DNA of 64,000 nt from Spiroplasma chinense (GTDB lineage Bacteria > Bacillota_I > Bacilli_A > Mycoplasmatales > Mycoplasmataceae): the NCBI RefSeq assembly GCF_008086545.1, contig NZ_CP043026.1, forward strand, positions 248,001-312,000, given 5' to 3'. A program made the position numbers and the translations under genes. The notes under the pieces are model-generated. The model searched no databases. It saw only the letters and a program-made list of their open reading frames with translations, and was not told where the DNA came from. This document shows, piece by piece, positions 19,655 through 28,087 of this stretch (the first letter of the stretch is position 1; the number at the start of each line of letters is the position of its first letter).

Positions 19655-19679
19655 ATTGTATACAATTATTGTATACAAT
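19655..19679. promoter_or_regulatory. Tandem palindromic operator for a GntR-type regulator of the citrate operon
   Basis: The perfect palindrome ATTGTATACAAT occurs twice, at 19655-19666 and 19668-19679, with centres 13 bases apart. TTGTATACAA-type sites are the known class of operators for GntR/FadR-like regulators, including citrate regulators of the CitO type in Gram-positive bacteria. The sites lie about 60 bases before the first gene of the citrate operon, next to a GATAAT -10-like box at 19695. The regulator is most likely the GntR domain encoded in the same operon at 24479. Confidence 0.8.
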
Positions 19680-19735
19680 TTTCCTAAAATGGTAGATAAT
19701 TAAGTTAGCAGAGATGCTACGAAAGGAAAAAAGAT

Positions 19736-21751
19736 ATGAAGCTAGTGTTGACAGTTGAAGAAACAGAACGTTTCAAACTCAAAAAGAGCAAGGCTCAAGA
19801 AAAAGTGGACAAGAGTAAGTCTAAACTTGATAATTATGAAGCCAAACAACTAGAAGTTTTGGATAAAAAAACAAAACTAGAAGAATTAAGATATAAACAA
19901 CGAATAGAAAAAACAGAAGCTAAATTCGAAAAAAAGATAAGTAATTTAAAGTCTTCTGGACAAAATAATGAAGTGATAACAAAATTAGAAGAGTATAGAA
20001 TAAAAAGATTAGAAGATATTAATGAAGATTATGAGATTATCAAAAAAAATCTTAGTTTGGGAAAAGAAGACCTTTTGGATGGAACCAAAGGTGCTCACGA
20101 AAACAACGTAAGAATTAAACTGACAGCAATTGATTATAAAATATCAAAAATCAATTTTAAAAGGAATTGAAAAACTCAAAAAGAAAGTAATTTTTCTGAA
20201 TTGAGAGGTAAAGAAAAGAAAATAGCTATGTTTGCAGCTCAAGCAGAACTGTTTGAAAGTGGAGATAAGTTATTTAAACCATTTGGTTTAAAAATGGTTG
20301 ATAAAAAAGAAGAAATCAAAACCAAATATGATCTTTGAAAATTAGATTGAAAGATTAAATTTGCAAAATGCAGTCAATGAACTTTCAAAGACTGAATAAA
20401 TATAAAAATTTGGACAATTCCATTTTGAATGTATGCTGGATTTGTTGGTATATTAGCAGCTTGTATTGCTACAAAAACAGTGGATGCAAACATGGTTTAC
20501 GGACCAGGAGTTTTGCTAACTATTGCGATAGCATCAGGGGTAGTATTTGGTAAAATTCCAATTTGAAAAAAATACTTTGGAGGCGCTGTGATGGGTTCAA
20601 TGTTTGTTGGAACCTTCCTAGTTTATTTTGGAGTAATTTCAAATCCCAAAGGAATACCACAAACTGATTGGAATGCAGGGCATTTTGTTTATAATGCAGT
20701 ACTTGTCTGATTTAAAAATCAAGACTTCCTAAGTTTCTATATTTCTGTGTTATTAGTGGGAGCTGTATTATTAATTCCAAGAAAAATGATTATTAAATCT
20801 ATTGGTGGTTTCTTTGCACTTATTATTATGGGAACAGTAATTGGACTTATTTTAGGTTATTTAGGTGCAATGATAACAGGTATGAATACCAAAGAATTAG
20901 TTTTATATTATGCATTACCAATTTTAGCTGATGGAAATGGTGGAGGAATCCAACCTATTGGTAAAATAGCTGGTAAATTTGGATATGATGAAGGAGCTTG
21001 AATTTCAAGAGGACTTGCAATTTCAACTTTAGCTTCAATCTTATCTGTAGTTGCAGCAGCTATTGTAAACGGTGTTGGAAAAGCAAAACCAAGTTTATCT
21101 GGAAATGGTAAATTAATGTTAAGAGATATTCACACAGTGGATAGAACTGCAAAAGTAAATGATAGAAATATTGCATCAGCATTGTTAATGATAATGATGA
21201 TCTATATGTTAAGTGATTTATTTGAAAAAGCTATTTTTACAGAAGAGAGAATTAAAATTTTAGTGCCTAACTTTGCATGAATGATTGTTATTTGTTTAGC
21301 ATTAAACTTAGCTAATGTAGTTCCTGTTGAAATGAAACTGGGAGCTGAAAAAATTAACAAATTTATTTCAAAACAAACTACTTGATTATTAATGGTAGGT
21401 GTTGGTATTATTTACATAGACTTAAAAACATTTATAGCAGCACTTAATGGAGAGGCATTATTTATATCAGCATTATTTGTAGTTGGTGCAACAGTTGGAC
21501 CAATGTTAATAGCAAAACCATTGAAATTTAATGCCGTTGAAGGAGCGGTTTCAGCTGGATTATGTATGACAGCACAAGGTGGATCTGGAGCTATTGCGGT
21601 TCTGGGAACAAGTGAAAGAATGGAGTTAATGCCATTTGGACAAATTACTTGTAGAATTGCAGGTAGTGTAGTTCTGGTGTTTGCGGCCATTGCGTTTGCA
21701 CAATATCCACCAAGCACCGCAGAAACAGCTCTTGCAGTTGTGGCAATATAA
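19736..21751 (+). CDS. 2-hydroxycarboxylate (citrate/malate) transporter with N-terminal coiled-coil extension
   Basis: A 671-residue protein. Residues from about 228 to the end are a normal 2HCT-family transporter (CitP/CitS/MaeN type). Both re-entrant-loop GGxG motifs are present (DGNGGGIQPIG and TAQGGSGAIAVL), and so is the conserved arginine motif GQITCRIAGS. The first 220 residues are not part of the family: they are highly charged, Lys/Glu-rich and coiled-coil-like (EKVDKSKSKLDNYEAKQLEV, LEEYRIKRLEDINEDYEIIK), probably cytoplasmic. The start has AAAGGAAAAAAG upstream. As first gene of the citrate lyase operon it most likely imports citrate, perhaps in exchange for acetate or with cations. 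Confidence 0.88.
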
Positions 21752-21764
21752 TAAAGGAGAATAT

Positions 21765-22025
21765 ATGGAAAAAATAGTGGTAGGTAGTGTTGAGAGTGGA
21801 GACTTAATGATGTCTATTTCTGAAAGTTCAGCAGGACATAATGAAATAGTTATTGATTCAAAATTCATTCAACAGTATGGAGACGAAATAAAAGAAATTA
21901 TTTCAAATATTTGTAATGAATATAATGTAAATAATGCAAAAATCGAAGTGAACGATCAAGGGGCAATCCCTGCAGTAATTAGAGCCAGAACTAAAACTGG
22001 ATTAGAGAGATTTTTGAATAAATAA
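21765..22025 (+). CDS. citD: Citrate lyase acyl carrier protein (gamma subunit)
   Basis: An 86-residue protein, normal length for CitD. It reads MEKIVVGSVESGDLMMSISE, then SSAGHNEIVIDSKFIQQYGD; the Ser that carries the phosphoribosyl-dephospho-CoA group lies in the first segment (VGSVESGD). The end ARTKTGLERFL matches the family. It starts 14 bases after the transporter with an AAAGGAG site. Its TAA overlaps the citE ATG (TAATG), so translation is coupled. It serves as the swinging arm of the citrate lyase complex. Confidence 0.93.
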   Translation: MEKIVVGSVESGDLMMSISESSAGHNEIVIDSKFIQQYGDEIKEIISNICNEYNVNNAKIEVNDQGAIPAVIRARTKTGLERFLNK

Positions 22026-22927
22026 TGGTTAAATTTGATAGAGTAAAACCTAGAAAACATATGTTATTTGTTCCTGCAGATCGACCTTCACTTTATAGAG
22101 ATTCAGTCTTCTATAAACCAGACACAATTATGTTTGATTTAGAAGATGCTGTTGCATACTCAGAAAAAGATGCAGCAAGAATGTTATTAATAGAAATATT
22201 AAACGATATAGATTACAATGCAAGTGGAATTGAAACTTGTGTAAGAATTAATGGCTTAGATACTGAATTTTTTGAAAAAGATATTGAAGCTTGTATAAAA
22301 GCAAAAGCAAATATGATTAGGCTTCCAAAAGCAGAAACTGTTGATGATGTAAATCAACTAGTTGCTTTAATGGAAAAATATGAAAAAGAAAATAATTTAG
22401 ATTATAAACTAAAAATATTTATAGCCTTTGAAAGTGCTTTGGGTATATTGAATGCATTTGAAGTTGCCAAAGCAAGCGACAGAATTGTTGGTATTGCTCT
22501 TGGAGGAATGGACTACTTACTTGACTTAAAAGGGAGTAGATTGCCAAATCGTGAAGAATTATTATATGCTCGCCAACATTTAGTTCATGTTGGAAGAGCT
22601 TTAAAATTGGATGTATTTGACGTAGTTTATGGAAATACATCAGATGATCAAGGATTTATTAATGAATTCAAATTTATAAAATCACTTGGATTTGATGGTA
22701 AATCTGTAATTCACCCAAACCAAATTCGATTAATTAATGAAGTTTATAAACCAACACAAGAACAATTAGAATATGCTCTTGAAATGAAAGAAGCTTTTGA
22801 AGAAAGTGTAAAACTTGGAAAAGGTGTTTTCTTATTCAAAGGTAACATGGTAGATAAACCAGTTGTTGAAAAGCAACTTGAAATTATTGAATTAGCAAAA
22901 GAATTTGATATGGAGGGTGCTTTATAA
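22025..22927 (+). CDS. citE: Citrate lyase beta subunit (citryl-ACP lyase)
   Basis: A 300-residue HpcH/HpaI-fold protein that cleaves citryl-ACP to acetyl-ACP and oxaloacetate. Motifs are LFVPADRPSLY, TIMFDLEDAVAYSEKDAAR, VRINGLDT, IRLPKAE with the Mg2+-binding Glu in IFIAFESALGILNAF, and GIALGGMDYLLDL. The C-terminal GFDGKSVIHPNQI is typical. The start codon overlaps the citD stop and the stop overlaps the citF start, giving a fixed stoichiometry. It contains no Trp, hence no TGA. Confidence 0.95.
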   Translation: MVKFDRVKPRKHMLFVPADRPSLYRDSVFYKPDTIMFDLEDAVAYSEKDAARMLLIEILNDIDYNASGIETCVRINGLDTEFFEKDIEACIKAKANMIRLPKAETVDDVNQLVALMEKYEKENNLDYKLKIFIAFESALGILNAFEVAKASDRIVGIALGGMDYLLDLKGSRLPNREELLYARQHLVHVGRALKLDVFDVVYGNTSDDQGFINEFKFIKSLGFDGKSVIHPNQIRLINEVYKPTQEQLEYALEMKEAFEESVKLGKGVFLFKGNMVDKPVVEKQLEIIELAKEFDMEGAL

Positions 22928-24477
22928 TGGAAAAACCGATTTTAACAAAAGAGTATCTAGAAAAAAACTTTAAAAATACTGGAACTAATTTAGTTCCTTA
23001 TCAACCAAAAGAAGTTAGAACTTCAACATTTAGTTCTAATTTAAAAGAACTTCCTAACAAAGGAATTGTAAGAGATAAAGTTGTAGATCTTGAAACTGCT
23101 ATAAAGAATAGTGGACTTCAAAATGGTATGACAATTTCTTTCCATCACCATTTCAGAAATGGAGATAAAACAGTTAAAGTTGTAATGGAAGTTATTAAAA
23201 AACTTGGAATAAAAGATTTGACAGTTGCAAGTAGTAGTTTTACAGATGCACACAATTTTTTAGGACAATATATTAAAGATGGTTATGTAAAAGCTTTGCA
23301 ATCATCTGGTTGTAGAGATGAATTGGGTGAATTTATTTCTGCTGGTAATTGTGAAACGCCTTTAATAATTAGAAGTCACGGAGGAAGAGCAAGAGCTATT
23401 GAATCTGGTGATTTAAAAATTGATGTAGCTTTTATGGCAGCAAGTGCAAGTGATTGTATGGGTAATGCAAATGGTATGATGGGAAAATCTCGTTGTGGAA
23501 GTTTGGGTTATGCAATGGTTGATGCACAATATGCAAAAACAACAATCATATTAACTGATAACTTAGTAGAATATCCAAATAGTGTAATTTCAATTCCACA
23601 AAATCATGTGGATTATGTAGTTGAAGTTGATGAAATTGGTGATTCAAAAGGAATTATGAGTGGTGCTATTAGGTTAACCACTAATCCCAAAGAAGAAATA
23701 ATTGCAGAAAACATTACCAAAGTTATTGTTAACTCAAGTTTATTTAAAAATGATTTCTCAATTCAAATGGGAAGTGGAGGGGCTTCACTTTCGGCTGTAA
23801 AGTATTTAAAAAAACATATGATTGAAAAAGGTGTTGTTGCAAGTTATGCACTTGGAGGTATAACTTCACATCAAGTTTCAATGTATAAAGAAGGACTTGT
23901 TAAGAGAATTTTGGATACACAATGTTTTGATCTTGCAGCAGTAGAATCAATTTATGAAAATAATGATCATATAGAAATTTCTGCATCTATGTATGCAAAC
24001 CCTCATAACAAATCACCATTCGTAAACAATTTAGATTTTGTAATTTTAAGTGCATTAGAAGTTGACATAAACTTTAATGTAAATGTTATGACAGGTAGTG
24101 ATGGGGTAATTCGAGGAGCTTCAGGAGGACATTCAGATACAGCTGAAGCTGCAAAAATTTCAATAGTATGTTTACCGTTGATTCGAGGAAGAATGAGTTG
24201 TGTTGTTGATAAAGTAAACACAATTATTACTCCTGGAAATACAGTTGATGTTATTGTGACCGACTTTGGTATTGCGGTAAATCCTTTAAGAAAAGATTTA
24301 CTTGATGAATTTTCTAAAGCTGGAGTAAAATTAAAAAGTCTACAAGAAATGAGAGACTTTGCTGAAGGTATTGTTGGAAAAGCAAAACCTATAGAATGAG
24401 ATTATAATAGACCTGTTGCGATAGTTGAAGCAAGGGACGGGTCGGTATTAGATATCATTTATAAAAGAAAGGGATAA
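22927..24477 (+). CDS. citF: Citrate lyase alpha subunit (citrate-ACP transferase)
   Basis: A 516-residue CoA-transferase-fold protein that exchanges acetyl-ACP for citryl-ACP. Features include GIVRDKVVDLETAIKNSGLQ, TISFHHHFRNGDKTV, IIRSHGGRARAIESGDLKID, GNANGMMGKSRCGSLGYAM, and the C-terminal VTDFGIAVNPLRKDL. One TGA Trp near the end must be read through to reach the family C terminus (RDGSVLDIIY). Its ATG overlaps the citE stop and its TAA is next to the following start (TAATATG). It is part of the CitDEF complex. Confidence 0.95.
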
Positions 24478-24478
24478 T

Positions 24479-25609
24479 ATGTTAGAATTAATTTTAGCGG
24501 CAAGAGAAAAGAGAACACTACTCTTACAAAATAAACTGTCAAATTATGATTTTATTGTAACTTTCGGTTTAAATATCCCAGGTGATCAAAAGTTGGGTGC
24601 AGACAAAGAAGCGTTCATAAAAAAATATTTTTTTGAATATGTTTCTTTTATAAATAAAACATATGATTCTCTTAATTATGAAGCTGTAGTTGACTCAGCA
24701 GGTTACATGTACTATGTATGATTTAATGATGCTGATGCATACGAAGTGAAAAAATTATCGTTAAAATTTGAACAAAGAATTGGAGACGTTAGCTCTTTAA
24801 TTGATATTGATGTTTATTTAGACATAAATAATAAAATATCTAGACAAAACCTTGCAGGTTTTCCACGTAAATGTTTTATGTGTGATCAACCTGCAAAGGT
24901 TTGTGCTTTTAAACAAACTCATCCCTATGAAGAATTGGTAGCCTTTGCAAATAAAAAAATGTCTGAGGAAACCAGTTTTGTTTTGCCGCATGAATATATT
25001 TTTGATGACATTATAAATGAAATCTTAAAAGGAAATTATTTACCAGGAGATAGATTAAAAGAACTTGAACTTGTAAATATTTATAAAGTTAGTAGAACAA
25101 AAATTAGAGATGTATTAAAAGAATTAGAGAGTAGTGGCGTTGTAGTTACAAAAAAATCTATGGGAGCTGTTGTAAAAAAACTTACAACAGACGAAGTCAT
25201 GGAACTTACTAATTTAAGAATTAAAATAAAAGAAATTCTCTTTTTGGATGTTTTTGAAAACTTAAATAAGAATGGTTATTATATAGTTGAAAACATTAAA
25301 AGAAATTTAAAAAAAATGGATGTAAACAATTACGATCTTGTAAAAAAATGAAACACACAATTTTATGTAAGACTATTTTCTATATCTAATAAAGAATATA
25401 CTAAAAAAATATTTAAAGGATTAGAAATGGTTTTTGGTAATATAAATTACCAAATTAATAAAAAAATTCTAGAAGGTGGTTTTAATATGAGAGACTATCA
25501 TTTAAGAATATGTGATGCCATTATGGATGAAAATTTCGAAGACTATCAAAAAGTTTTATCTGATTATTTTGCAACATTGAAAGATTTAATTTTAAATCTT
25601 GATGAGTAA
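24479..25609 (+). CDS. CitX (holo-citrate lyase synthase) fused to a GntR-type transcriptional regulator
   Basis: A 376-residue two-part protein. Residues 1 to about 162 are CitX, which transfers phosphoribosyl-dephospho-CoA to apo-CitD: MLELILAAREKRTLLLQNKL, the core IDIDVYLDINNKISRQNLAG, and the cysteine-rich motif RKCFMCDQPAKVC...THPYEEL. From about 165 on it is a GntR regulator. The winged HTH reads IINEILKGNYLPGDRLKELE and VSRTKIRDVLKELESSGVV, and an all-helical ligand-binding domain follows (FCD-like). No stop or frame break separates the parts, and TGA codons are in frame as Trp. Normally these are two proteins (CitX and CitO). The regulator part probably binds the tandem operator at 19655. 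It overlaps citC by eight bases. Confidence 0.88.
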
Positions 25610-26636
25610 CTACGTTTTTGAAAAAATAAATTTAGACAGCAAAATATGAAAAAATAAAATTGAAAACTTTTTAGAAAAATTTAAATTAAAATACACAGAT
25701 GTAGATTTAACTATTGTTGTAACTGAAAACAACAGTATTGTTGCAGTGTGTAGTAAGAAAAATAATTTAATAAAAAATATAGCTATTGATGAAAAACATT
25801 GAGGTGAAAATATTTCAAACACTTTAATTACAATGGTAATGAAAGAAATATTTCAGCAAGGTTATGATAGTGCTATGGTTGTAACTAAAGTTGAAAATAA
25901 AAAAATATTTGCATCTTTAAACTTTAAGTTAATATATCAAAACGAAAGAATTTCATTTTTAAGTTCTAATGATAAAGATTATTTAAGTTATAAAGAAATG
26001 ATACAAAATTTAGATTATAAAAATAAAACTGCATTTATTATTTTAAATGCAAATCCATTTACATTAGGTCATGAACATTTAGTTGAAACTGCAAGTAAGG
26101 AAAATGATATTGTATATTTAATTCCGGTATTGGAAGACATTTCGTTTTTTTCAACTGACGAAAGAACTGAAATTATATTAAAAAACATTACTAAGTTTAG
26201 TAATGTTGAGTTGCTTAAAGGAACACAATATTTAATTTCAAATAATTTATTTCCAAGTTACTTTCTAAAATCAACAGAAGAAAGTATAAAAGAGCAATCT
26301 CAATTAGACGCAAATATATTTTGTGATTTAATAGGAAAAAATTTTTCTAAAGTAACAAGATACGTTGGTGAAGAACCTTATTCAAAAACTACAGAGATTT
26401 ATAATAATATAATCAAAGAAGAATTAAATCAAAGAAATATAAAACTAAAAATAATAAAAAGGTTAGAAAAAAACAATGTAGCAGTAAGTGCTTCAATTGT
26501 TAGAGAGTGTATTTTTAAAAATGATTTGGAGACAATAAAAAAAATGGTTTCTAAAGAAACCTTTGAAATAATCTCTCAAGAGAAATATTATAAAAGAGCT
26601 TTAGAAAATCCAAACAAAATATTTAAGAATAATTAA
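25602..26636 (+). CDS. citC: [Citrate (pro-3S)-lyase] ligase
   Basis: A 344-residue protein that acetylates the prosthetic group on CitD with ATP and acetate, activating the lyase. A GNAT-like N-terminal part (IAIDEKHWGENISNTLI) occupies about residues 1-130. The nucleotidyltransferase domain follows, with FIILNANPFTLGHEHLVETA (TLGH is the HxGH-type motif) and a C-terminal VSASIVREC motif. The start ATG overlaps the end of the CitX-GntR gene by eight bases (GATGAGTAA), so the two are translationally coupled. Its 3' end overlaps the convergent citG by 14 bases. Two TGA Trp codons occur in the first third. Confidence 0.93.
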
Positions 26637-27402
26637 TTAGATCTAGAAAAATAACTAGAACTAAAATATCTGCACAACCACCTGGAGAAATATTGTTATT
26701 TATTGCTTGTTGATTTATTTCGAGTATTTCTTCAAATGTTAATTCGTTGTTAATTAACTGATTTTCAACTTTGATATAGCTTTGTTTGATTTCTAGTCAA
26801 TTTTCAAAACCAATTTTATTTATCAAAGTTGTGTCGTCTAAATTAATTGTGAGATGTATTAGTGTTGTAAAAAGTTTTATGTTTTCATCTTTAATATTTA
26901 ATTTCTTGTAAAACATATAGGTTTCAAAAACAATTTTGTAACCTTCAATTGCATAATCAATTGCATGTTTTAAATTATATTTCTCTACCATAGAATTTGA
27001 TTTGGATACAGGTCTTGGAATTCTTGAAAGTTCTTTACAAAATTGTAATAGATAAGTTTCAAAATCTAAAGAAAGCATTTTTGATTTTTTAAAACAAAAA
27101 TAAAAAATGCCGCAACAAAATATTAATCCTTTATGAGTATTTATATCCTTAGTCTTTTTAAACATAATTTGTTCGTATTTAAAACCAATTTGTTTTAATT
27201 GATTAAAAGTATTTATTGATTCTAAATTATTATCAATTTCCTTAAAATATGGAATGAAAGCTTTATAACTTTTTTGAAAAGTTTTAAAGTTCATATCTTT
27301 ATGAGAACCTGAATTCTTTTTACTAACTAAACCTAGTGAGGGAAAGAAACTATATTCAGTTTTAATGGCTCTTAACATTAAAGAACTATATAAATTTCTC
27401 AT
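26623..27402 (-). CDS. citG: Triphosphoribosyl-dephospho-CoA synthase
   Basis: A 259-residue protein making the precursor of the citrate lyase prosthetic group from dephospho-CoA and ATP. Family motifs are LRAIKTEYSFFPSLGLVSKK NSGSH near the start, NTHKGLIFCCG, and the C-terminal NNNISPGGCADILV after a TGA Trp. The Ser-Gly-Ser-His and Pro-Gly-Gly motifs are intact. AAGAGGTG precedes the ATG. It lies on the opposite strand from the rest of the locus: tail-to-tail with citC (14-base overlap) and head-to-head with the aldolase gene, with only 49 bases between starts. That space has no TTGTATACAA site, so it may not be controlled like the main operon. Confidence 0.88.
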
Positions 27403-27451: not shown

Positions 27452-28087
27452 ATGAGTGAGATACAAAAACATATTGAAAAGTTAGAGAAGCATAAAATTT
27501 CTACAATAATTAGAACTGATGATTTTGATCATGCATACAATATTGTTAAAGCTTCAAATGAAGCGGGAATAAAGTTTGTCGAGATTACTCTAACAATACC
27601 AAATGCACTAGAATTAATTAAAAAATGTAGTATTGATTTCCCAGAACTAAGTGTGGGGGCAGGAACTGTGATTACAATGGAAGATGCTAAAAATTCTTTA
27701 GAGTATGGTGCAGAATATTTGGTTTCACCAATAGCTATACCAGAAGTTGTTGAATGAGCAAAAGAACAAGATGTATTGTGCATTGCTGGAGCTTTAACTC
27801 CAACTGAAATGCATACACTTTGAAAAGCGGGTGCTGATTTAATCAAGTTTTATCCAGCAACTTCAATGCCATTAGATTACATTAAATTAATTCATAATCC
27901 TATGCCAGAATACAAATTCTTGGCAACTGGAGGTATTGATTATAACAATATTTTAGATTATATAAATGCAGGTTGTATTGCTGCAGGAGTTACAGCAGAT
28001 TTAGGTGGAGCTGCAAAAACAGTTTCTTATGAAGAACTTGTAACTATTGCCAAAAAATATGTTGAAAAAGTAAATTCAATAAAATAA
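27452..28087 (+). CDS. eda: KDPG/KHG aldolase family protein, possible oxaloacetate decarboxylase
   Basis: A 211-residue class I aldolase. The catalytic Glu44 lies in FVEITLTIP, the GAGTVITMEDA motif follows, and the Schiff-base Lys132 lies in DLIKFYPAT, as in E. coli Eda. The C-terminal LGGAAKTVSYEELV fits. The start at 27452 has GAAAGGAATT upstream. Eda enzymes are known to decarboxylate oxaloacetate as a side activity. The Entner-Doudoroff pathway is not expected in mollicutes, and no partner gene for it is here. In this position the enzyme may convert the oxaloacetate released by citrate lyase to pyruvate; that role is inferred from context. Confidence 0.85.

What the first reader, a model, noticed from the sequence alone, without database searches (positions are those of the whole stretch)
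24479..25609. CitX fused to a GntR-type regulator in one polypeptide
One uninterrupted frame carries a CitX enzyme (RKCFMCDQPAKVC motif) and, after a short linker, a GntR winged helix plus helical effector domain. CitX and CitO are separate proteins in the citrate loci I know. The fusion would make the prosthetic-group transferase its own operon regulator, linking enzyme maturation to transcription.
Basis: partly seen in the sequence, partly recalled or inferred. Interest (0 to 1): 0.82.

Follow-up and report, generated by a model that had tools for sequence, protein, structure and literature searches.

The report
Citrate-lyase maturase fused to gene regulator
In a group of wall-less bacteria, the enzyme that fits citrate lyase with its cofactor is joined in one protein to a DNA-binding regulator, and a matching DNA site sits in front of the citrate genes, so one protein probably both matures the enzyme and controls its genes.

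Summary
The fusion is real. The frame 24479-25609 is open only under genetic code 4 (two TGA codons read as Trp); it encodes 376 aa: CitX (residues 2-162), a GntR winged helix (172-232) and an FCD-like helical domain. It is no sequencing artefact: seven genomes of one Mollicute family carry it as one clade, with an unchanged 26-residue junction and dN/dS below 1 in every part. A sister genome has separate, overlapping citX and gntR; a clostridial locus has them side by side. None of 97 other class-level CitX loci has the fusion (85 are CitX-CitG). The exact pair recurs at the cit promoter in six of eight genomes with this GntR, one exact copy in the seventh, a one-mismatch copy in the eighth; the two cit loci without GntR have none. 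The own genome has only three exact copies; the third precedes a malic-enzyme gene. Best reading: a bifunctional CitX/cit-operon repressor responding to citrate or a similar acid, BirA-like in design. Direct coupling of maturation to transcription is unproven; effector-domain metal positions are eroded in six of seven fusions.

The parts
19655..19666 (.). operator copy 1, ATTGTATACAAT (perfect palindrome)
   Evidence: recurs at cit promoters of related genomes
19668..19679 (.). operator copy 2, ATTGTATACAAT; overlaps a predicted -35 hexamer (TATACA 19672-19677)
19695..19700 (+). predicted -10 hexamer GATAAT, 15 bases after operator copy 2
   Evidence: consensus match only
19736..21751 (+). citS-like 2-hydroxycarboxylate transporter with a long N-terminal extension
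   Evidence: PF03390 7.7e-111 over residues 225-652
21765..22025 (+). citD, citrate lyase acyl carrier protein, the expected substrate of CitX
   Evidence: PF06857 1.1e-24
22025..22927 (+). citE
   Evidence: conserved in all ten cit loci; name from recall of the family
22927..24477 (+). citF
   Evidence: conserved in all ten cit loci; name from recall of the family
24479..25609 (+). citX-gntR fusion gene, 376 aa under code 4
24479..24964 (+). CitX domain, residues 1-162
   Evidence: PF03802; fold match 7dcm Z 20.6
24965..24991 (+). junction, residues 163-171; no length change in seven fusions between residues 148 and 173
24992..25174 (+). GntR winged helix-turn-helix, residues 172-232
   Evidence: PF00392
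25175..25606 (+). FCD-like helical effector/dimer domain, residues 233-376
   Evidence: fold matches to FCD regulators; Pfam FCD not reached at E 1e-3
25602..26636 (+). citC; its ATG overlaps the last codons of citX-gntR
   Evidence: PF08218 2.3e-55; sequence
26623..27402 (-). citG, separate and on the other strand
   Evidence: PF01874 1.4e-42
27452..28087 (+). KDPG/KHG aldolase-family gene linked to the cit genes; candidate oxaloacetate decarboxylase (inference)
   Evidence: PF01081 3.4e-32 (read from the second codon); in 10 of 10 cit loci

Best explanation
The gene makes one bifunctional protein. Its N-terminal CitX domain transfers the phosphoribosyl-dephospho-CoA prosthetic group to CitD (inferred from the family). 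Its C-terminal GntR/FCD part dimerises and binds the two ATTGTATACAAT sites that overlap the predicted core promoter of the cit operon (and probably one such site before a malic-enzyme gene), most likely as an autoregulatory repressor that a tricarboxylate such as citrate releases. It arose once in this Mollicute family by joining adjacent, overlapping citX and gntR genes of a cit operon. Shown by sequence: the single frame, its conservation, both domains' folds by model, the co-occurrence of operator and GntR. Inferred: enzymatic activity, DNA binding, sign of control, ligand.
For: Single open frame and two confident domains. Full-length CitX-GntR in 7 genomes; their GntR parts are one clade with 99/95 support, the separate-gene genome G166 as sister. 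Junction of 26 residues (148-173) without a gap in 7 of 7. dN/dS 0.09-0.16 for G181/G186 and 0.18-0.40 for own/G180 across CitX, junction, HTH and effector parts. The fusion has the residues that are invariant in 17 CitX proteins, fused and not, among them C132, C135, C142 and H148. The own genome has one CitX and one match to the fusion profile (5 of 8 candidates scored). Operator: exact pair at the cit promoter in 6 of 8 genomes with the GntR (own, G180, G181, G182, G186, G166), one exact copy in G151, a one-mismatch copy in G162; at the cit loci of G152 and G155, which lack the GntR, no copy within two mismatches in the stretch read except one two-mismatch match inside citS of G155; expected number per 500 bp about 0.0002-0.0004 by base composition. 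In 37 genomes that I named, pairs within 50 bases occur only at these six places. The last copy ends 6-15 bases before a candidate -10 hexamer in the seven promoters with an exact site, a repressor-like position. Related standalone GntR genes at aconitase/isocitrate dehydrogenase genes carry the same 12-mer upstream: 8 of 8 in one clade of class relatives (6 exact, 2 with one mismatch) and 4 clostridial ones (2 exact, 2 with one mismatch), which points to a citrate-type ligand.
Against: No experiment. The four positions that hold metal in canonical FCD domains are largely replaced in six of seven fusions (N,Y,H,Y in four; A,K,Q,Y; N,H,F,Y), so citrate binding in the usual way is doubtful. E. 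faecalis CitO is an activator (passages of PMC3198936), so the sign may be the other way. The malic-enzyme site is not conserved: the only other malic-enzyme gene found in the ten cit genomes, in G186, has no site within one mismatch. G181 has a third exact site near a phosphoribosyl-pyrophosphate-synthetase-like gene and G151 four more elsewhere, so some copies are chance or another regulon. The absence test rests on two genomes only. In the window alone, two matches within one mismatch are not beyond chance (24 of 100 shuffles).
Confidence: 0.72

Rival explanations
1. Same bifunctional protein, but a citrate-dependent activator like E. faecalis CitO rather than a repressor.
For: CitO activates with citrate at two sites (PMC3198936 passages); the citO-like proteins of family f28 share an unusual Asn at the second FCD position with G166 and M. 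lactucae.
Against: Sites overlap the -35/spacer region of the predicted promoters, which fits repression better; the fused proteins do not group with the four citO-like proteins of f28 in the tree, and those loci lack the 12-mer within one mismatch.
Confidence: 0.22
2. BirA-like coupling: the state of the CitX active site (prosthetic-group precursor bound, or apo-CitD docked) directly changes dimerisation or DNA binding of the GntR part, so transcription reads the demand for citrate lyase maturation.
For: Fixed-length short junction in 7 of 7 fusions; canonical effector-site residues lost in six of seven fusions while the domain stays under constraint; effector domain least conserved (mean pairwise identity 0.33 against 0.51 for the HTH). 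BirA shows that such a design exists (abstract starts of PMC6391492 and PMC4016012).
Against: No evidence of contact or signal between the domains; M. lactucae, also fused, has N,N,H,H; the effector domain is retained, not deleted.
Confidence: 0.2
3. The fusion is only a co-expression device: both domains work, independently, and the junction has no regulatory meaning.
For: CitX is fused to CitG in 85 of 97 other class-level loci read, so fusions of CitX are common and need no signalling; separate neighbouring citX and gntR exist in G166 and G813.
Against: Junction length is invariant at 26 residues although the proteins are only 33-60% identical to the window's.
Confidence: 0.35
4. Two separate proteins are made from the frame by internal initiation or cleavage.
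For: The window has an in-frame ATG at residue 161, right at the junction.
Against: That ATG lacks a Shine-Dalgarno and is not conserved: in the printed stretch the only in-frame start of G180 is TTG 193, inside the HTH, and G162 has none; the separate gntR of G166 does have GAAGAGGAA before its ATG.
Confidence: 0.08
5. The frame is an artefact (sequencing error, misread stop or chimeric assembly).
For: Table 11 shows two stops.
Against: Both are TGA in a code-4 genome; seven genomes agree; the named complete genome of Mesoplasma lactucae, NZ_CP023668.1, has it too.
Confidence: 0.01

Closest known systems
CitO (GntR family) of Enterococcus faecalis, and citO-like genes beside citG in family f28 genomes
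   Same: GntR regulator tied to a citrate lyase operon; CitO too has two operator sites; unusual Asn at the second FCD position shared with G166 and M. lactucae
   Different: separate protein, activator, not fused to CitX; the 12-mer not found within one mismatch in four f28 loci; not one clade with the fusion in the tree (E. faecalis CitO itself was not at hand)
CitX (PF03802; structures 7dcm/7dcn) and CitX-CitG fusions
   Same: CitX domain with the family-invariant residues; fusing CitX to a partner is common
   Different: the partner elsewhere is CitG, the enzyme of the preceding step (85 of 97 loci), not a regulator; score below the NCBIfam TIGR03124 cut-off (91 against 105.25 bits)
BirA, group II biotin protein ligase/repressor
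   Same: design: an enzyme that attaches a prosthetic group to a carrier protein, joined to a winged-helix DNA-binding part that controls genes of the pathway
   Different: unrelated enzyme; regulator C-terminal, not N-terminal; a separate effector domain is kept; signal between the parts not shown
Standalone GntR genes at aconitase/isocitrate dehydrogenase operons of class relatives and Clostridia
   Same: same 12-mer palindrome upstream; GntR regulators beside citrate enzymes
   Different: not fused; beside aconitase and isocitrate dehydrogenase rather than citrate lyase; the class relatives keep three of four FCD metal positions as His

Membership tests
CitX (PF03802) | family profile over the curated cut-off | tested here: met
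   109.6 bits against 25
CitX (PF03802) | residues invariant across CitX proteins (N32 P34 G35 K38 G75 K91 E98 D109 D111 R122 C132 C135 C142 H148) | tested here: met
   17-protein alignment A2
CitX (PF03802) | CitX fold | tested here: met
   model matches 7dcm, Z 20.6, rmsd 2.0 over 164 residues
CitX equivalog TIGR03124 | curated cut-off | tested here: not met
   91 bits against 105.25
CitX (PF03802) | transfers the prosthetic group to apo-CitD | not testable with these tools
   needs biochemistry
GntR regulators | GntR winged-helix profile PF00392 over the cut-off | tested here: met
   47.6 bits against 27
GntR, FCD subfamily (PF07729) | FCD profile | tested here: inconclusive
   not reported for the window protein at E 1e-3, met by the unfused relative of G166 (40.5 against 24.3 bits); fold matches FCD regulators
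GntR, FCD subfamily (PF07729) | metal-chelating positions D/N,H,H,H | tested here: not met
   window has N,Y,H,Y (the role of the positions is recalled)
CitO | GntR regulator encoded with and acting on a cit operon | tested here: inconclusive
   the gene lies in the operon and the operator co-occurs; action not tested
CitO | one clade with citO-like proteins | tested here: inconclusive
   separate clades, deeper order unresolved; E. faecalis CitO itself not in the set
CitO | citrate-dependent activation | not testable with these tools
   needs reporter assays
BirA-like maturase-repressors | enzyme state controls DNA binding | not testable with these tools
   needs binding assays; no homology claimed

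The most novel reading that the evidence does not exclude
The fusion is a second, independently evolved BirA-type switch: occupancy of the CitX active site by the prosthetic-group precursor or by apo-CitD, rather than citrate in the FCD pocket, sets DNA binding at the tandem ATTGTATACAAT sites, so the cell makes citrate lyase only as fast as it can mature it. The loss of standard FCD metal positions in six of seven fusions would mark the hand-over of sensing to CitX.
Probability: 0.18. Interest if true: 0.85.

Novelty: new variant of a known kind. Interest (0 to 1): 0.62.

Why it matters
It is a compact natural case of a prosthetic-group transferase joined to the likely regulator of the operon whose enzyme it matures, in bacteria with small genomes. 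Because a sister genome keeps the two parts separate, two relatives lack the regulator, and the operator can be followed in all of them, the question whether joining an enzyme to a regulator creates a new signal can be tested directly. It also points to a GntR group with operator ATTGTATACAAT at citrate lyase, aconitase and isocitrate dehydrogenase genes well beyond Mollicutes.

Tried and rejected
Artefact from reading TGA as stop: rejected, code 4 and related genomes. Internal start for a free GntR: not conserved. Fusion outside the family: 0 of 97 CitX loci of the class sample (all fetched); in the profile searches of 391 genomes (class of a Clostridiales MAG) and 369 genomes (class of a Burkholderiales MAG) no listed match spans both domains (low-scoring rows are not listed there). 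Wider conservation of the malic-enzyme site: 2 of 10 cit genomes have the gene, only the own genome has the site. The 12-mer in the four citO-like f28 loci: none within one mismatch; in the clostridial cit locus G813: only two-mismatch matches. In the tree of citE+citF the fused genomes are not one clade, because the two GntR-less genomes (G152, G155) fall among them, as expected if they lost the domain; a later origin of the fusion with respect to G155 is not excluded. Literature: searches listed no paper whose title, abstract start or passages read describe a CitX-GntR fusion or this operator; most subscription papers, including the CitO paper of 2008, are not held. The AlphaFold alignment held only two CitX rows, so the arrangement of the two domains in the model should not be trusted.

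Full report
What was checked. The frame 24479-25609 has two TGA stops under table 11 and reads as one 376-residue protein under table 4, the code that neighbouring genes also require. Pfam places CitX at residues 2-162 (E 1.7e-31) and GntR at 172-232 (E 1.3e-12). The window's genome (1,370,182 bases, one contig) has a single CitX gene.

How widespread it is. In the 320 genomes searched of the order, 12 have a CitX match. Two were set aside: G014 is below the family cut-off and G311 holds only a fragment. The other ten hold full cit loci, which I read. Seven carry CitX-GntR in one frame, 374-391 aa from the conserved start (own, G182, G180, G181, G186, G162, G151). G166 has citX (180 aa) and gntR overlapping in different frames; G155 has CitX alone (172 aa); G152 has CitX with about 100 further residues that do not match GntR. 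In a class-wide sample, 96 of 395 genomes have CitX. I took all 97 CitX loci outside the own family: 85 have CitX and CitG in one frame, 12 have CitX alone, none has GntR in frame. A phylum sample of 392 genomes gave full-length matches only in the seven. In 391 genomes of the class of a Clostridiales MAG and 369 of the class of a Burkholderiales MAG no listed match spans both domains. One clostridial locus, G813, has citC-citD-citE-citF-citG-citX-gntR, with citX and gntR as neighbours 70 bases apart.

Origin. The seven fused GntR parts are one clade (99/95), with the separate gntR of G166 as sister (96/93). On citE+citF, G166 branches first among the ten, followed by the fused genomes and the two without GntR. 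The simplest account is joining of neighbouring genes after the split from the G166 lineage and later loss of the regulator in G152 and probably G155.

One protein. In G166 the gntR ATG lies inside citX and has GAAGAGGAA before it; in the fusions no such start is conserved. The window has an ATG at residue 161 without a Shine-Dalgarno; in the printed stretch G180 has only TTG 193, inside the HTH, and G162 none. From residue 148 to residue 173 all seven have exactly 26 residues. dN/dS is 0.09-0.16 for the G181/G186 pair and 0.18-0.40 for own/G180 over CitX, junction, HTH and effector parts, with synonymous sites near saturation, so all parts are under constraint.

Domains. CitX has every residue invariant among 17 CitX proteins, matches solved CitX by sequence (A2 profile, 1.2e-29) and by modelled fold (7dcm, Z 20.6, rmsd 2.0, 164 aligned). 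The C-terminal half matches GntR/FCD regulators: TM0439 3sxy (Z 14.7), PmiR 7xp0 (Z 14.5), and Atu1419, whose entry title reports a fortuitous citrate. At the four positions that hold metal in FCD domains (role recalled), two kdg-type regulators have D,H,H,H, seven aconitase/icd-type ones N,H,H,H, four citO-like ones S,N,H,H, G166 and M. lactucae N,N,H,H, and the other six fusions N,Y,H,Y (four), A,K,Q,Y and N,H,F,Y.

Operator. A dinucleotide-shuffle control in the window for up to one mismatch is weak (24 of 100 shuffles have two or more), so the case rests on comparison. The exact pair lies upstream of the cit operon in own, G182, G180, G181, G186 and G166, with gaps of 1, 9, 19, 7, 7 and 2 bases; one exact copy in G151; one copy with one mismatch (ATTGTATACAAA) in G162. 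The cit loci of G152 and G155, without GntR, have no match within two mismatches in the stretches read, save one two-mismatch match inside citS of G155. Among 37 genomes that I named, 12 have any exact copy and only the six above have a pair. The own genome has three copies in all; the third ends 39 bases before a malic-enzyme gene. Most other single copies lie inside genes or beside unrelated genes, as chance would give. The last copy ends 6-15 bases before a candidate -10 hexamer in the seven promoters with an exact site, which suggests repression; these are consensus matches only.

A wider GntR group. Standalone relatives in the class sit at aconitase-isocitrate dehydrogenase operons or related genes, and 8 of 8 in that clade have the 12-mer nearby upstream (6 exact, 2 with one mismatch). 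Of nine clostridial loci fetched, the four whose GntR gene follows an isocitrate-dehydrogenase-like gene have it (2 exact, 2 with one mismatch), the other five, G813 included, do not within one mismatch. Aconitase was confirmed by Pfam in one locus (L204); isocitrate dehydrogenase is named from the look of the sequence. This links the operator to citrate metabolism well beyond Mollicutes.

Mechanism. I think the protein matures citrate lyase through CitX and, as a dimer through its GntR/FCD part, represses its own operon until citrate or a related acid is present. citC starts inside the end of the fusion gene, and citD, the expected substrate of CitX, is three genes upstream, so enzyme, substrate and regulator rise together. 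Whether CitX occupancy feeds into DNA binding is open; the eroded FCD pocket is the one observation that hints at it.

Literature. Passages of PMC9666726, PMC6245734 and PMC12239587 describe citrate genes in Mollicutes; none of the three has the word GntR in its main text. PMC9666726 and PMC12239587 say that a further use of oxaloacetate is missing or unclear. Passages of PMC3198936 describe CitO as a separate activator in E. faecalis. For BirA I saw only search listings with abstract starts.

Verdict. A real, conserved fusion with a matching, conserved operator; ordinary in its parts, unusual in their combination.

Noticed in passing
window 27452-28087 and the nine other cit loci (L013-L021): A KDPG/KHG-aldolase-family gene lies by the cit genes in 10 of 10 loci. 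Such aldolases can decarboxylate oxaloacetate (recalled), which could answer what happens to the oxaloacetate, a gap noted in PMC9666726 and PMC12239587. In G166 only a 106-aa frame matches.
   Followed up: partly
L223:3999-5195 (own genome C1:732299-733495): The only other exact ATTGTATACAAT in the genome ends 39 bases before a malic-enzyme gene (PF00390/PF03949), a possible second target of the regulator.
   Followed up: partly
L204-L208, L210, L213, L222 and L248-L251: GntR genes at aconitase and/or isocitrate-dehydrogenase-like genes of class relatives and Clostridia carry the same operator upstream; searches listed no paper describing such a regulon.
   Followed up: partly
window 19736-20407; L015:4139-5527; L016:4041-7070: The CitS-like transporter has a 224-residue, charged, coiled-coil-like N-terminal extension; in M. 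lactucae a similar-looking stretch is a separate frame, and in G152 the fused frame reaches 1009 aa.
   Followed up: no
L016:9820-10698: G152 CitX has about 100 C-terminal residues with no Pfam match in place of the GntR part, and no operator copy in the cit locus: a regulator apparently lost or decayed.
   Followed up: partly
L017:8141-9173: citC of G180 is split into two overlapping frames (frameshift or sequencing error).
   Followed up: no
L022:9964-10260: G311, outside the family, keeps only a C-terminal CitX fragment (98-aa frame) with no other cit gene recognised around it.
   Followed up: no
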